Below are positions 31,626 through 59,563 of a stretch of DNA of 64,000 nt, one piece after another; the first letter of the stretch is position 1, and each line of letters opens with the position of its first letter. Source of the stretch: Cytophagales bacterium (GTDB lineage: Bacteria; Bacteroidota; Bacteroidia; Cytophagales; Spirosomataceae); contig RDXN01000041.1 of the NCBI GenBank assembly GCA_004292855.1, forward strand, positions 1-64,000, written 5' to 3'. The notes below the pieces were generated by a model. That model worked only from the letters and a program-made list of their open reading frames with translations. It did not search any database and was not told where the DNA came from. A program made the position numbers and the translations under genes.

Positions 31626-31845
31626 GAGGTGCATTTCAATCTTGTGTGCAGTAACGGGACTTGTGCAAAATGAGCCTTTACCCCCGCCCTAAAGGCGGTC
31701 GGCCGCTGCCGGGCCTGCTGGCGCGAGAAAGATCCCGCATCGGCGGTCCGAGCCGGAGGTCATTTTGCGCCAGCGGGCCCGGCAGCGGCCGACCGCCTTT
31801 AGGGCGGGGGATAGAGACTAGCCATACGAGACCGAAATGCACCCA
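31626..31845. repeat. MITE-like intergenic palindromic element
   Basis: Outer inverted ends GGTGCATTTC (31628-31637) and GAAATGCACC (31834-31843) enclose a large inverted repeat: arms 31681-31724 and 31767-31810 (CCCCCGCCCTAAAGGCGG...), 44 nt with one mismatch and a 42-nt spacer. It has no gene. A 19-nt piece of the left end, GGTGCATTTCAATCTTGTG, recurs in complement at 53680-53698, so the end sequence is repeated in the genome. Confidence 0.75.
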
Positions 31846-53636: not shown

Positions 53637-53698
53637 CTACCGACGCTACGCTGTTTAATCCCTCCGGGATGGCTTGCCGCACAAGATTGAAATGCACC
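53637..53698. repeat. Diverged REP unit plus copy of the 31.6-kb element end
   Basis: CTACCGACGCTACGCTGTTT followed by a decayed palindrome (53637-53672) matches the REP units around the RAYT gene at 57 kb. Directly after it, 53680-53698 repeats in complement the 19-nt end of the element at 31628-31646. Two repeat families therefore meet here, between the DUF2442 gene and the FRG gene. Confidence 0.65.
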
Positions 53699-53700
53699 CC

Positions 53701-54439: not shown

Positions 54440-56605
54440 TCATTCTTCAAAATATTCTGTACCAGAAACATCGATAAAAAAGCCCATACTATTATTCTCC
54501 ACATAAGACAATCCTTTCTCGAAGCGAAATACCCGCTCATACTTACAGGGTATAATAACCTCTCCATTTATGTCAACATACCCCCATTTACCATTTTTAA
54601 CTATACTAGCTTTGTCTTCAGAAAACTGACTTTTGTCAAAATACTGGCTATCGTATTCAAAAGGAACAATAGTCCTTCCTGTCTTGTCAATTAATCCCCA
54701 TTTACCGTCCTTTTCCACTCTTGCCAATCCTGACAGTCCTTGTGAAAAAGGATAGGCAAGTCTATAGTCAAAGGGTATAACAACTGTCCCCTGCTTGTCA
54801 ATGAAACCGAATTTGTTATCTTTTTGCACAGCCGCTAATCCTTCAGAAAAAGGCTGTGTATAATCATATTGAAAAGGTATAATAACAACTCCTGCCTTGT
54901 TAATAAATCCCGATTTACCATTGATTTTCACGCCTGCTAACCCTTCCGAGAATTTTTTTGCACCATCGTAAACAAAGGGTATGACAACTTCTCCAAATTC
55001 ATCGATAAAGCCATATTTATCATCTCTTTTTAAACTCGCCATTTTATCCGAGATCCTATCTTCAGAAAACCTATCACGTTCATCTTCTAAAGAAGTAACA
55101 ACCGTCCCATTCTTGTCAATAAATTCCCAACTGTTGTTTCTTTTTGCAATCGCTAATCCATTCTTAAAGAAAGAGATATACTCATATTGAGGTTTAATGA
55201 CTATTTTCCCATTTGTATCAACACAACCCCATTTTCCATTCTCTTGTACATTTACTAAGCCTTCCGAAAACAGCCAAACCTGCTCATACTGAAAAGGTAT
55301 AACAAGCGTTCCGTGCCTGTTTATAAATCCCCATTTTTCATTCTTTTTTGCTATTGATAGCCCTTTGTCGAAGGGTTCCACGTCCTCATATTCAAGGGGT
55401 ATCACAACAACCCCGTATCTGTCAACAAAGCCCCATTTATCATCCTTCCTCACCCTTGCCAACCCTCCCTCCGAAAAAAGTTTTACATCGTCATATTCGA
55501 AGGGAATAACCGTTACCCCTTGTGCATTAAGGCATCCCCACTTACCATCCTTTTTCACACTCGCCCTTCCCTCTTGAAAAAACCAATCTAAGTCGTAGAC
55601 ACAATCAATTACAATCTTCTTGTTTCTGTCGCAAAAGCCCCATTTATTTCCTTTTCTGTAGGGTATTAGGTCAGGTGGCTCGTTATACTGGATTGTTTTC
55701 TGAACCTGTGGCTTTGCTAAATCGCGTATTGTGAAAATCAGCGGCTTCTTTAACGCACCCTCCAACTCTGCCAAGAGAGTTCGGTGAATGGGTTTACCCT
55801 TGTCGTATATGTCCGCAAAAAGTTTGCTTTGCCGGGGCGCGTTGATGTCATCAGGGCAGGCGAGGAGTGCGTCGGTTGGGGAATATACGGAAGGCCAATC
55901 AGGAAAACAGGCTAACGTTTGAAGTTCAAGTTGCAGCAGCAACAGACTAAAATCATCCAGATACAGATTGAAATCGCTTAATTGACGACGTGTGTGCCGG
56001 TAGGGAGGTGTTCCCGTTTCAGTGGCCTCCTCACCAGCGAATGCTGGTACATAGAAACCATCGTAATCAACCAGTGCCAGATGTCCATCAGCCCGAACCA
56101 TGATATTATCTGGTTTCAGGTCTCCGTGAGCCATATTCTGATTCAGCATCCACTCGGCCAATAGAACAAAACGAAAGGCCAGAAAACCGAGAGCAGAGCG
56201 GTCGGCGCGGGTGCAACAGTCCCGCACATACTCCCCCAGCGTTTGGCCTTCTACCCAGGGCATCATCACCACGTCGAATTCTTGGCGGGTGCAGTGGGCG
56301 CAGTCAACCCAGAGTTCGTCGGGGTGGTAGGTCATGGGGAGCAGGTAGGGTGAGGGATTGTCGGCAATCCACTCGCCAATGAGCCGGAGCCGCCGGGCGC
56401 GGTCGGGTACGTCGCGGAGGAAACATTTCAGGGCCATGTGGTTGCCGGTGCGGGTGTCTTCCATTTTGAAGACAACGGCAAAGTTGCCGCTGCTAAAAAA
56501 GGGGTGGCCGTTGGGTTTCCGCACGGGCCGGAGGTAGTTCAGGGTGGCGAGGGTGTCGGCGGCACCTTCAAGGGAGGAGATGTAGTCGGTAATGGAGGGG
56601 TACAT
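54440..56605 (-). CDS. Protein kinase-like domain with 12 WG repeats
   Basis: 721 residues, no signal peptide. Residues 40-260 are kinase-like: the ATP-binding Lys in MALKCFL, the catalytic loop HGDLKPDNIM, and LVDYDGF at the DFG position, with a TGTPPYRH activation segment; the Gly-rich loop is replaced by SSGNFAVVFK. After a linker (~300-330), residues 330-715 hold 12 WG-type repeats (KWGFCDRNKK, KWGCLNAQG, KWGFVDRYG, ... FFIDVSG), a likely ligand- or protein-sensing beta structure. It belongs with the vWA and PP2C genes upstream, separated from them only by the RAYT/REP block. Confidence 0.9.
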   Translation of the reverse strand: MYPSITDYISSLEGAADTLATLNYLRPVRKPNGHPFFSSGNFAVVFKMEDTRTGNHMALKCFLRDVPDRARRLRLIGEWIADNPSPYLLPMTYHPDELWVDCAHCTRQEFDVVMMPWVEGQTLGEYVRDCCTRADRSALGFLAFRFVLLAEWMLNQNMAHGDLKPDNIMVRADGHLALVDYDGFYVPAFAGEEATETGTPPYRHTRRQLSDFNLYLDDFSLLLLQLELQTLACFPDWPSVYSPTDALLACPDDINAPRQSKLFADIYDKGKPIHRTLLAELEGALKKPLIFTIRDLAKPQVQKTIQYNEPPDLIPYRKGNKWGFCDRNKKIVIDCVYDLDWFFQEGRASVKKDGKWGCLNAQGVTVIPFEYDDVKLFSEGGLARVRKDDKWGFVDRYGVVVIPLEYEDVEPFDKGLSIAKKNEKWGFINRHGTLVIPFQYEQVWLFSEGLVNVQENGKWGCVDTNGKIVIKPQYEYISFFKNGLAIAKRNNSWEFIDKNGTVVTSLEDERDRFSEDRISDKMASLKRDDKYGFIDEFGEVVIPFVYDGAKKFSEGLAGVKINGKSGFINKAGVVIIPFQYDYTQPFSEGLAAVQKDNKFGFIDKQGTVVIPFDYRLAYPFSQGLSGLARVEKDGKWGLIDKTGRTIVPFEYDSQYFDKSQFSEDKASIVKNGKWGYVDINGEVIIPCKYERVFRFEKGLSYVENNSMGFFIDVSGTEYFEE

Positions 56606-56664
56606 TATTCAGCAGCAGGTAGTTAACAGTAGGCAGTGAACAGTAGGATTTTGTAGTAGAAATT

Positions 56665-56985
56665 GTCCCGTAGGGGCATAACAATGCAATGTCGGTAGAA
56701 AAGGGCACATATCAACGTGTCGGTTGGTCGTCCCGTAGGTCGGACGGCCGCTGCCGACGGAACAATGCAATGTCGGTTGGTGAACGGGCATTTGGTGGCG
56801 GGGTCTCATTAACCGACACGTTGTTGTTTCGTCCCCTACGGGACGTTGCGAATGTGGGGATTACCACTTTATATCGACAGCTACCGACACGTTGTTGTTT
56901 CGTCCCCTACGGGACGATGTGTTTAACGGGGGGGACTACTGACGCAGTTGCTACTGACGCTACGCTGTTATGTCCCGATGGGACG
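56665..56985. repeat. REP/REPIN cluster on the kinase side of the RAYT gene
   Basis: Five units: 56665-56698 and 56729-56780 in one sense (palindrome GTCCCGTAGGGGAC then ...AATGCAATGTCGGT), and 56812-56845, 56881-56916, 56951-56985 in the other sense (ACCGACACGTTGTTG then palindrome). Units facing each other form nested hairpins. The second unit carries an extra piece (TCGGACGGCCGCTGCCGA) inside its head. The spacer between units 2 and 3 (GGGCATTTGGTGGCGGGG) recurs in the cluster beyond the RAYT gene. Confidence 0.9.
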
Positions 56986-57005
56986 AGGGGACGGTGAGAC
57001 GCGCT

Positions 57006-57482
57006 TTATTCGGGTTCTTTGAACAGGAAACGCTCGTCGTATTCTATCTCGAACGCGTCCAAGAACCGGCGGTATTCTTCCAGAAACGTGCTTCTGTGGT
57101 GATACTTCTCCTGATTTTCAATGTACGTAATGACGGCGGGCAATTGGCTTTTTCCGTAACTAAACCGAAGCGTCGGACCGTGCCCATACCCCTCTTGCCA
57201 ATTAAAATGAGCGGGGGTTTTCCGGTTTTCGTTAATCCATCTTGAAGAGTCCTGTTTAAGGTTTTTCATCAAGTCGGAGAGAGACTGCGTGGGACGCATC
57301 CCAATCAGAAGATGAACATGATCTGGCATTCCATTGATGACCAACAATTTATGGCCGTAATTGTGGATAATGCCAGTCATGTAGGCATAGAGTTCGTATT
57401 TCCAGATGGACGCGATGACCGCGTCGCGGTATTTGACCGCAAACACCAGTTGGAGGTGAATTTGGGTATAGGTGTTCGGCAT
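57006..57482 (-). CDS. REP-associated tyrosine transposase (RAYT, Y1/HUH family)
   Basis: 158 residues, normal length for the short RAYT group. HVHLLIG (His-X-His) near residue 55 is the metal-binding HUH motif, and the family start (TYTQIHLQLVFAVKYR) and QEGYGHGPTLRFSYGKSQ with a conserved Tyr downstream (Y in AVITYIENQEKYHHR) fit Y1 transposases of the IS200/IS605 superfamily. RAYTs nick and move REP palindromes. This gene lies between two clusters of such palindromes, its presumed substrates, with the same family of sequences on each side. It is not flanked by the ends of a conventional insertion sequence. Confidence 0.92.
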   Translation of the reverse strand: MPNTYTQIHLQLVFAVKYRDAVIASIWKYELYAYMTGIIHNYGHKLLVINGMPDHVHLLIGMRPTQSLSDLMKNLKQDSSRWINENRKTPAHFNWQEGYGHGPTLRFSYGKSQLPAVITYIENQEKYHHRSTFLEEYRRFLDAFEIEYDERFLFKEPE

Positions 57483-57538
57483 TCGGCAGGATTCAGTTTA
57501 GGTCTAGCAAGATAATAAAATCAGACACGTAAATCATT

Positions 57539-57769
57539 GTCCCATTGGGACATAACAGCACCGCGTCGGTAGAAGACGACAGATGTCACCATGCGCAATC
57601 ATCGTCCCGTAGGGGACGGAATAATGTAATGTCGGTTGGCGGTGGGCATTTGTTGACGGGGCGTAATTAACCGACACGTTGTTGTTCCGTCCCCTACGGG
57701 ACGGTGAAAACGCGGGATGGCATCTGCCGTTTTCTACCGACGCTGCGCTGTTCCGTCCCTACGGGACGG
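57539..57769. repeat. REP/REPIN cluster on the PP2C side of the RAYT gene
   Basis: Four units: 57539-57572 and 57603-57639 in one sense, 57670-57704 and 57734-57769 in the other, nested so that the outer pair (ending ACCGCGTCGGTAG / CTACCGACGCTG) encloses the inner pair. The palindrome core is GTCCCGTAGGGGAC. The last unit overlaps the end of the PP2C gene: the stop codon TAG (57759-57761) lies in the REP palindrome. Confidence 0.9.
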
Positions 57770-58583
57770 GTGGTAAACCATCAATCAGCACCATTGTGTA
57801 ATCGTCGGGGCCGAGGAGGTTTTGGGCAGCAAGGGCGCGGGTGTAGGCCATAAACGCCGGGCGGCTTCGGAGGGCGCGGGCGAGGGGTGCCCACACGTCG
57901 CGGCCAAAGCGGTGGTGGGGTTGCCAGTGCGCGAGGTGTGTGGCCGCCCGGTTGCCGAGGGCGGTGGGTTGGCTGGCAAGGCGTTGGAGCGTATCGGAGG
58001 GGCCGGTGAGGGCGTCGTAGGCCATCAGCACGTATTGGGCCAACGTGTCGGACAATAGAGCATACCGTTGCCCGTGTCGACCGGGCAATTGGCCGGTCTG
58101 AAAGCCGTTTGGGTTGGGCGCGTTGTTCCAGTTGAGCAGGTACGGGCCAGAGGTAAACACGTGTAAATCAGACAAAGACGAGCGTAGCCCGGTTCGTCTG
58201 TGCTATGCCAGGGCCACCGCATCGCCGTAGGTGGCCCAGTGGGCGCAGTCGCCGACAAGGTGCAGGGTCGCGAGCGTCGCGTAGGAACCCTCCGACAGGA
58301 ACTTGTTTAGTTTGAGCGGGTCCGAAGCCGCCTGTTGTTGGTAGGTCTCGTAGAACGGCTCCCAAATGCGGTCGAGCCAAGCCGAAAAATCGGGGAAGTC
58401 AGCGAAGGGTTCGGCAGGGACGTGGTTCACCAGATACGTAGCCCATTCGCCTGCGTAGATACCCCCGCCCCCGGCTCCGTCGGCAACGGCCCAAACGGGG
58501 ACGTCGGACGTGAGACGGAACGCGTCTTCGTTGTCGGGGTAGGTCGGCTCCTCTTTGCCGAGGGTTTGGTCCCGCGTTCTCAT
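57759..58583 (-). pseudogene. PP2C-type Ser/Thr phosphatase interrupted by an in-frame TAG
   Basis: From the ATG at 58583 (4-nt ATGA overlap with the vWA stop) the frame reads DNEDAFRL (metal-binding Asp), VWAVADGAGGGGIYAGEW (DGxG motif), then GDAVALA and TAG at 58203-58205. It continues in the same frame with HRRTGLRSS...DLHVFTSGPYLL, ending with GPDDYTMVLIDGLP and TAG. All PP2C landmarks are therefore present across the stop. An aromatic residue would be usual at the TAG position, but the consensus there is weak. The last three residues and the stop come from a REP palindrome, so the natural C-terminus has been replaced. The partners are the vWA gene and, past the repeats, the kinase. Confidence 0.8.
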
Positions 58584-59563
58584 GGTTCCGGTTGCAGCTT
58601 ACTGCCAACCCCGGCGGTAGCCGTTGTGGGCGTACCGATATTCATAAACTTTACCAGCGCGGCCACGTCAGCATTGAAGCTCATCCCCACGTAACGCCGG
58701 GCGAGGTCTTCCCGACGCAGGTCGGCAATGGCGAGGTGATAACTCGCGGGCATCTCGCTCGACAAATCGTAGAGCAGCCGGGCGTAGGCGTCGGGCGGCA
58801 GTTCGTCGGCGCGGCTTGGGAACAGGGTGGGCGAACCGGCAGCCCCTGATAAATGGACGTTGAGCAACAGCACATGCCCGTCGGTGGTGCAGCGTTGTTT
58901 GATGCGAGTCGTTATCGTAAGCAGGGCGTCGTCTTTGGCGTCGGTGGCCGCTCCGTCGGTGATGTTGATCACGGTGGGCGGGTAACAGTCAAGCCCCCGG
59001 TGTGTAGCCAGCCACGTGTCGAGCAGGGTTTCAGCGAGTTCAAATGCCTTTTTCATGGGCGTTCGACCCGCGCACACGGGTTCGAGCTAGTAGGGGCGTT
59101 GTTCGGTTCGTTTCACAATTTGCCCGCGAATACGGTTCTCAACCTCAACAGGGGTAAAGGCTTTCGGATTCGTATAGAGGTCGTCGGGCGAGACCCAGTT
59201 TTGGCCCGCGAGGTTGCCTTCCCAAAGCAAACTAGCCTCGTCGCCCCCATACCCAATCAGGGCAATGTCGTAGTATCGGCGCACCTCGTTGCCTTTCACG
59301 CAGCGGTTCACCAATTCATAAACCGTTTGGTTAACAACCCGTGCCACAGCATCGGCTTTGGTGCAGGTTACGCCGTCATACACAATCGGTTCGCCCATCG
59401 ACCCCGATTGGTCGATCAGGAATAAAAACGCGGTGGGCGACGACCGGGTGATCAAGGCCGTGTACGGATTCGCCTTGACGGTTGTCTGACGGGCTTCCTG
59501 TAGGTTTTGGTGCAGGATGTTGGCGGGGACTGTGTTTGTAGCGGTGGGTACTAGAGTTGTCAT
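58580..59563 (-). pseudogene. von Willebrand A (TerY-like) protein interrupted by an in-frame TAG
   Basis: From the ATG at 59563 (ATGA overlap with the PLD/J gene stop) the frame reads TAFLFLIDQSGSMGEP, the MIDAS DxSxS motif, goes on to IVKRTEQRPY, meets TAG at 59087-59089, and continues in the same frame LEPVCAGRTPMKKAF (MIDAS Thr) and INITDGAATD (MIDAS Asp) to 58580. In TerY-type vWA proteins the position before (I/L/F)EPV is commonly Trp, so TGG to TAG is the simplest origin. All three MIDAS elements are present only if the TAG is read through. vWA, PP2C and kinase together form the TerY-P triad described for Ter-associated stress systems. Confidence 0.82.

What the first reader, a model, noticed from the sequence alone, without database searches (positions are those of the whole stretch)
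56606..57770. RAYT transposase between nested REP palindromes, inserted in the middle of an operon
The RAYT gene is flanked by two clusters of nine units sharing a palindrome core and a GTCGGT-type tail, arranged in facing (REPIN-like) orders. Spacers are also shared between the clusters (GGGCATTTG...GGGG). It splits the run of the PP2C and kinase genes. RAYT/REPIN systems are best known in Gammaproteobacteria; a Bacteroidota example with both transposase and nested REPs together is useful. A tenth, diverged unit lies at 53637.
Basis: partly seen in the sequence, partly recalled or inferred. Interest (0 to 1): 0.62.

Follow-up and report, generated by a model that had tools for sequence, protein, structure and literature searches.

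The report
IS200-type transposase with own REP arrays
A small single-strand-DNA transposase in a Bacteroidota genome sits among short DNA palindromes of its own, and the same pairing recurs in relatives across the phylum, in a branch of this enzyme family that had been listed as having no such repeats.

Summary
In detail: a 158-aa Y1 transposase gene (57006-57482, minus) lies between two clusters of nine related palindromes; a tenth is at 53638. 'RAYT' is only partly right. The protein has DHVH, WQ and Y---Q, the signature of TnpA-Y1 subclass 1.2 (IS200 side), not of class 2 RAYTs (Y---NP). The published table lists subclass 1.2 as having no REPs.

All five copies in this genome have palindromes of their own on one or both sides. 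In 80 relatives, repeated hairpins occur at 2.71 per kb beside the gene and 0.04 per kb farther off; 44 further loci agree. The common unit is hairpin, 6-8 nt, GGTA(G): GTAG lies 3' of the hairpin at a distance, whereas classical REPs carry it 5' at the foot. One sister family occupies 47 sites, many as four-hairpin elements of about 162 bp; the window's own family has only about four single copies elsewhere. In Flavobacterium the gene keeps its locus (median dN/dS 0.058) while arrays differ by whole units.

Best reading: a REP/REPIN system built on an IS200-type enzyme. Against: five unit-bearing genomes lack the enzyme, and cleavage is untested.

The parts
57006..57482 (-). Y1 (HUH-Tyr) transposase gene, 158 aa, DHVH / WQ / Y120-IEN-Q124-EK-Y-H; subclass 1.2-like
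   Evidence: Pfam Y1_Tnp 93.3 bits; NCBIfam IS200 over cut-off; tree; predicted fold nearest IS608/ISDra2
56664..56698 (-). U1, outer unit, upstream cluster (strand as in model R1: tail, then hairpin)
56739..56778 (-). U2, inner unit whose hairpin is interrupted by about 16 nt (TCGGACGGCCGCTGCC)
   Evidence: E 0.0015
56811..56845 (+). U3, inner unit
56882..56916 (+). U4, extra unit
56952..56984 (+). U5, outer unit
57539..57572 (-). U6, outer unit, downstream cluster
57603..57638 (-). U7, inner unit
57668..57702 (+). U8, inner unit
57735..57767 (+). U9, outer unit; overlaps the last codons of the PP2C frame (stop at 57759)
53638..53670 (+). U10, single unit after an HTH-domain gene
54440..56605 (-). 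kinase-like / WG-repeat gene on one side of the block
   Evidence: WG repeats 384 bits; Pkinase E 5.9e-7 but 29.6 bits, under the 31.7 cut-off
57759..58583 (-). PP2C-like frame on the other side, with one in-frame TAG
   Evidence: no Pfam family at 0.01

Best explanation
The block is a REPtron of a kind not described in the papers I could search: a TnpA of the IS200-related subclass 1.2 together with its own REP family. Shown here: the gene, its arrays, the gene-array link in relatives, the common unit (hairpin, 6-8 nt, GGTA(G)), the facing order, the four-hairpin dispersed elements of sister families, vertical inheritance of the gene under purifying selection in Flavobacterium, and whole-unit differences between near relatives. 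Inferred: the enzyme binds the hairpin in single-stranded DNA (probably the lagging-strand template), cuts at or beside the GTAG on one side of it, as IS200/IS605 TnpA cuts a tetranucleotide at a distance from its end hairpins, and rejoins strands, so that single units, facing pairs or whole REPINs are copied, lost or moved. The gene inside a facing pair resembles an element whose REPINs are its enzyme-less derivatives. In this window the family looks barely dispersed, or its copies have been lost.
For: All 5 gene copies in the genome have palindromes of their own (three on both sides, C30:62750 and C67 on one side). 80 relatives: 333 repeated hairpins in 122,786 nt beside tnpA against 16 in 411,200 nt elsewhere; 72 of 80 loci have at least two. 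GTAG on the 3' side: 143 times, 120 of them 7-9 nt from the hairpin; mirror CTAC 24 times, 4 of them at 7-9. GGTA at 5-9 nt in 54 of 80 loci against 6 of 80 for the mirror; in the 63 loci not used when I first saw the motif, 45 against 5; classical geometry 1 of 666 hairpin sides. Independent 44 loci: 3.34 against 0.49 per kb, 37 of 44, GTAG at 7-9 in 56 of 73. Six IS200 loci: no repeated hairpin. Nearest unit points its tail at tnpA in 45 of 58 upstream and 39 of 49 downstream cases (p about 3e-5 and 4e-5). Own genome: 92 pattern hits against 1 for the reversed pattern; 21 of 26 fetched facing-pair loci have exactly four hairpins. Nine syntenic Flavobacterium genes: median dN/dS 0.058 in 34 of 36 pairs. 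Fold: best PDB matches IS608/ISDra2 TnpA.
Against: No cleavage or movement was seen. Five genomes with these units (G040, G080, G113, G160, G247) have no such TnpA even at E 0.001, and G041 and G128 only weak matches. The genome-wide association of consensus unit and TnpA is modest: 25 of 43 unit-bearing genomes at one hit or more (p 0.037), 18 of 24 at two or more (p 0.0016), 8 of 13 at four or more (p 0.25). 8 of 80 and 7 of 44 loci show fewer than two repeated hairpins. TnpA-hairpin co-variation vanishes once near relatives are thinned (23 loci, r 0.215, 356 of 5000 permutations as high). The most dispersed family's own gene (C30:67643-68090) is frameshifted in this assembly. In the window the units nearest the gene point away from it, unlike most relatives, and the spacing to the tail is 12-13 nt.
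Confidence: 0.74

Rival explanations
1. Classical RAYT (class 2 TnpA-REP) with classical GTAG REPs.
For: REP-like arrays, facing pairs, a GTAG in the unit; NCBIfam REP_Tyr_transpos gives a sub-cut-off score.
Against: Y---Q not Y---NP; REP model far under cut-off; class 2 proteins, E. coli RayT among them, fall on the other side of a strongly supported branch (99, with long-branch warnings). GTAG within 0-2 nt of the 5' foot in 1 of 666 hairpin sides.
Confidence: 0.08
2. An ordinary IS200/IS605 insertion whose subterminal hairpins look like REPs.
For: Family model and fold are IS200.
Against: Arrays of many hairpins instead of one at each end; dispersed arrays without tnpA; copies in the genome only 48-61% identical to the window's; same locus kept across Flavobacterium species; six IS200 loci show no repeated hairpins.
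Confidence: 0.05
3. The palindromes are terminators or RNA elements that multiply by slippage or recombination, and the transposase gene merely tends to land in them.
For: Tandem whole-unit differences between near relatives could be slippage; unit-bearing genomes without TnpA.
Against: About 65-fold enrichment next to this gene against the rest of the same loci, a fixed 3' tail in genomes of many families, vertical inheritance of the gene inside its arrays, facing REPINs of constant length at unrelated sites.
Confidence: 0.1
4. The units are moved by another Y1 enzyme (a class 2 TnpA in the same genomes), subclass 1.2 being a passenger or a regulator.
For: Five unit-bearing genomes lack subclass 1.2; class 2 members exist in this genome (C70, C101).
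Against: Repeated hairpins beside two of three class 2 loci here are of other sequence and carry no TAG tail (0 of 6 and 0 of 3 hairpins), the third has none.
Confidence: 0.08

Closest known systems
TnpA-Y1 subclass 1.2 (Quentin et al. 2018, PMC6006769; sections 12, 13, 17, 18, 31, 38 and passages read)
   Same: DH[IV]H, WQ, Y---Q--HH type motif (72 of 80 relatives by my regular expression; the window itself reads Y-IEN-Q-EK-YH), about 150 aa, few and diverged copies per genome, Bacteroidetes
   Different: Table 1 lists REP 'no' and the text says generally no IS200-type end structures; here most members have REP-type arrays. Their automatic search asked for GTAG or GTGG 0-2 nt 5' of the hairpin, which would miss this geometry
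Class 2 RAYT / TnpA-REP with GTAG REPs and REPINs (E. coli RayT; PMC2817692, PMC3733652, PMC8266576, passages seen)
   Same: one private REP family per gene, REPtron, facing dimers dispersed in the genome, vertically kept gene
   Different: IS200-side enzyme; GTAG 3' of the hairpin at 7-9 nt instead of 5' at the foot; four-hairpin elements common here; gene evolves slowly in Flavobacterium, whereas rayt genes were reported to evolve fast (PMC2817692 abstract)
IS200/IS605 (IS608, ISDra2)
   Same: fold, HUH/Y---Q site, cut motif at a distance from a hairpin (from PMC8266576 and PMC6006769; exact IS608 distances recalled)
   Different: no whole-element copies, arrays of many hairpins, enzyme-less dispersed derivatives in facing pairs
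Subclass 2.6 (Bertels group 5) of Bacteroidetes with 'atypical secondary structures'
   Same: phylum; non-classical palindromes beside the gene
   Different: class 2 enzyme (NH[LIV]H, YIH[QN]NP); the class 2 locus of this genome at C70:96833 has other hairpins without this tail

Membership tests
TnpA-Y1 subclass 1.2 | DH[IV]H + WQ + Y---Q--HH, about 148 aa | tested here: met
   window DHVH, WQ, YIENQEKYH (second H of HH is Y/H shifted: Q..-YHH), 158 aa; 72 of 80 relatives match the strict form, the other 8 did not match my expression
TnpA-Y1 subclass 1.2 | sequence clade next to, not inside, subclass 1.1 | tested here: inconclusive
TnpA-Y1 subclass 1.2 | low copy number, diverged copies | tested here: met
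   5 copies, 48-61% identical to the window's; 86 of 198 phylum genomes have 1-8 at E 1e-30
TnpA-Y1 subclass 1.2 | no REPs (Table 1) | tested here: not met
   arrays beside 72 of 80 and 37 of 44 relatives. I read this as a revision of the published description, not as exclusion, since it is not used to define the sequence subclass
class 2 RAYT (TnpA-REP) | Y---NP motif (NP[LV][RK]xG) | tested here: not met
   Y---Q in window and relatives
class 2 RAYT (TnpA-REP) | GT[AG]G 0-2 nt 5' of the hairpin | tested here: not met
   1 of 666 hairpin sides for GTAG (GTGG not counted)
REPtron / REPIN (works like) | gene flanked by its own palindromes, copies dispersed as inverted doublets | tested here: met
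   for sister family A: 81 pattern units at 47 sites, 26 sites with a facing pair, gene at C30. For the window's family only flanking and single copies
REPtron / REPIN (works like) | TnpA cuts single-stranded cognate REP | not testable with these tools
   needs biochemistry
IS200/IS605 insertion sequence | near-identical whole copies, one hairpin at each end | tested here: not met

The most novel reading that the evidence does not exclude
REP/REPIN systems arose at least twice among Y1 transposases: beside the known class 2 RAYTs, an IS200-side lineage (subclass 1.2) spread through Bacteroidota runs its own REP economy with the tag on the other side of the hairpin and four-hairpin REPINs as its usual dispersed form, and is kept by selection as a single-locus gene.
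Probability: 0.62. Interest if true: 0.75.

Novelty: new variant of a known kind. Interest (0 to 1): 0.64.

Why it matters
If right, an enzyme subclass published as having neither insertion-sequence features nor REPs gains a substrate. It gives a second, IS200-derived case in which to ask how a transposase becomes a kept host gene with a population of tiny dependents, and a direct test of how the cut site is chosen: same GTAG, other side of the hairpin. It also supplies a DNA motif by which REPs can be annotated in Bacteroidota, where classical searches fail.

Tried and rejected
Tried without result or set aside: counting the window's family by a simple pattern (8 hits, 5 in the window, 2 for the reversed control), replaced by the covariance model. 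Co-variation of TnpA and hairpin sequence: r 0.32 in 51 of 80 loci, but not significant after thinning, so not used as support. A guide tetranucleotide 5' of the hairpin foot: no conserved letter beyond a preference for A next to the foot (51%). A target-site preference outside dispersed REPINs: an A next to the outer hairpin in 48 of 52 flanks (probably one more stem pair) and T before it in 29 of 52, too weak to call. First yafU/yafT and dinJ neighbourhoods of E. coli fetched by wrong coordinates before rayT. Considered and rejected: ordinary IS200 insertion, classical RAYT, passive terminator arrays (see rivals). The 80 relatives are the best 80 of 558 confirmed, so they lean to close kin; the 44 further loci are what remained of 58 after 7 without an intact frame and 7 near-duplicates were dropped.

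Full report
What is there. The minus-strand gene 57006-57482 encodes 158 aa with Pfam Y1_Tnp (93.3 bits). Nine palindromic units surround it, five upstream in window order (56664-56984) and four downstream (57539-57767); a tenth lies at 53638. A unit reads CTACCGAC, 12-13 nt ending in TGTT and two or three letters, then GTCCC...GGGAC; seen on the other strand, hairpin first and GTCGGTAG after it. Each cluster is an outer facing pair around an inner facing pair (U1/U5 around U2/U3; U6/U9 around U7/U8), with U4 extra. Both clusters fold better than shuffles. U2's hairpin is interrupted by about 16 nt.

The enzyme. NCBIfam names it IS200/IS605 (72.8 bits, cut-off 55); the REP-associated model stays far below its cut-off (30.9, cut-off 80). 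Its catalytic context is Y---Q, not the Y---NP of RAYTs. In a quick tree of 95 proteins, three class 2 proteins (two from this genome, and E. coli RayT) are cut off by a branch of support 99, and six IS200 transposases form one group of support 88 inside an unresolved fork; the program warns of long branches. A predicted model (mean pLDDT 83.9) matches IS608 and ISDra2 TnpA best (E about 1e-7), E. coli RayT later (rank 30, E 7.9e-5). Quentin et al. 2018 (PMC6006769, sections and passages read) define a subclass 1.2, closely related to IS200 but without its properties, 148 aa, DH[IV]H, WQ, Y---Q--HH, Cyanobacteria and Bacteroidetes, 'REP: no'. Of 80 relatives, 72 match DH[VIL]H, WQ and Y---Q--HH by my expression. 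I assign the window's protein to subclass 1.2 on these features; the paper's own sequences could not be compared.

The genome. Five genes of this type are present, 48-61% identical to the window's where compared. Each has palindromes of its own: the window, C108 and C30:67643 on both sides, C30:62750 and C67 on one. Four of the families share hairpin, 5 nt, GTYRRTAG. A pattern for that shape gives 92 hits in the genome and 1 for the reversed pattern. Of these, 81 are of family A (GCCCC/ACCCC; gene at C30:67643), at 47 sites, 26 of which show a facing pair. I fetched 26 facing-pair loci (24 of family A, 2 of family B): 21 have exactly four hairpins by my expression, outer and inner pairs with gaps near 40, 31 and 40 nt and a usual length of 155-169; one of the 21 (L119) has another order, and L137 an insert in its middle. 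Family A's own gene is frameshifted in this assembly. The C108 family has 15 of 20 pattern hits at its own locus, the other five at the three-mismatch limit. The window's family has, outside the window, three confident single units (C98, C29, C60), one weak one (C22) and a weak hit that belongs to family A (C52).

The relatives. One scan of genome contigs gave 558 confirmed relatives, of which the best 80 were kept; by their titles they come from Cytophagales, Flavobacteria, Chitinophagales, Bacteroidales and others, with two MAGs labelled as Proteobacteria and one Balneolaceae. Within 800 nt of tnpA there are 333 repeated hairpins in 122,786 nt, against 16 in 411,200 nt of the same loci farther off; 72 of 80 loci have at least two. 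A motif-free repeat measure beats every control window in 49 of 67 testable loci. GTAG stands 3' of the hairpin 143 times, 120 of them at 7-9 nt; the mirror CTAC 24 times, 4 at 7-9. A GGTA tail at 5-9 nt occurs in 54 of 80 loci, its mirror in 6; in the 63 loci I had not looked at when I saw the motif, 45 and 5. The classical position of GTAG occurs at 1 of 666 sides. From 155 such units the common form is a hairpin around CCGT(T)AGG, then AAATATYGGTAGAAA, with GGTAG in 71% and GGTAA in 26%. Six subclass 1.1 loci have no repeated hairpin. The nearest unit points its tail towards tnpA in 45 of 58 upstream and 39 of 49 downstream cases: the gene usually sits inside a facing pair. In the window it sits between two complete nested sets.

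Inheritance. Nine Flavobacterium loci share neighbours wherever their contigs reach, with median dN/dS 0.058 in 34 of 36 pairs; synonymous change is near saturation in many pairs (pN/pS median 0.127). In the two near pairs aligned, arrays differ by whole units: two units more in L033 and one more in L035, about 150 nt more in L013. This looks like a kept gene amid a changing array.

Across the phylum. In 198 genomes the consensus pattern gives 206 hits against 49 for the reversed pattern and the TnpA is found in 86 (E 1e-30). Genomes with at least two hits have the gene in 18 of 24 cases against 68 of 174 others (p 0.0016); at one hit or more the link is weak (25 of 43, p 0.037), at four or more not significant (8 of 13, p 0.25). 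Among 58 relatives other than the window's genome, the own-genome pattern gives 156 hits against 17 (my sum). Five unit-bearing genomes (G040, G080, G113, G160, G247) show no such TnpA even at E 0.001; G041 and G128 show weak ones. They may have lost the gene or use another enzyme; the fetched places in G040, G113, G128 and G247 show units but, by a motif scan, no convincing Y1 gene.

How it most likely works. By family knowledge (HUH/Y1 enzymes; PMC6006769 section 31, PMC8266576 passages), such enzymes cut single-stranded DNA beside a hairpin; in IS200/IS605 the cut tetranucleotide lies at a distance and is chosen by a guide 5' of the hairpin, in class 2 REPs GTAG itself sits in the guide's place. 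Here GTAG lies at a distance 3' of the hairpin (or CTAC at a distance 5' on the other strand), which looks more like an IS200 end than like a classical REP. I therefore infer cutting at or beside this motif and copying or moving of units and facing pairs. Which strand is read and what the host gains are not known.

Literature. No account of REPs for subclass 1.2 appeared in searches (open PMC library only; subscription papers, among them Bertels et al. 2017, were not searched as texts). PMC2817692, PMC3733652 and PMC8266576 were seen as passages.

Noticed in passing
window 58203-58205 and near 59087 (minus strand): The PP2C-like and the VWA-like frame each continue in frame past a single TAG; the relative L096 has uninterrupted frames over the compared parts. 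TAG is also a common stop in the window (13 of 37 long frames), so recoding is unlikely; decay or sequence error are likelier.
   Followed up: partly
window 31697-31710 and 31781-31794; 56742-56755; L120:216; L127:78 and 467: A short sequence GG[AT]CGGCCGCTGCC recurs inside or beside palindromes, at 31.7 kb as an inverted pair, and interrupts REP hairpins in U2 and in L120 (three window matches against 0.89 expected, 5 of 100 shuffles as many). Perhaps a smaller nested palindrome family.
   Followed up: partly
window 53638-53700; L141 about 776-840; L144 about 735-800: Three of the single units of the window's family are followed, some 15-30 nt past the hairpin, by a shared ACAAGATTG.
   Followed up: no
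L005/L146, G000:C30:67643-68090: The gene belonging to the most dispersed REPIN family of the genome is frameshifted near its start in this assembly.
   Followed up: partly
L137 (G000:C96): A four-hairpin REPIN carries, in its middle, another palindromic insert of about 160 nt with ends like AGCTGTTTGAGTTAGCG.
   Followed up: no
L092, L093, L094 (G000:C70, C101): Other Y1 transposase genes or fragments of this genome; the two with readable frames are of the Y---NP kind. Loci L092 and L093 have repeated hairpins of other sequence without a TAG tail.
   Followed up: partly
L233 (G225:C1): A tandem array of 24 units lies next to a subclass 1.2 gene, strands alternating over most of its length.
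   Followed up: no
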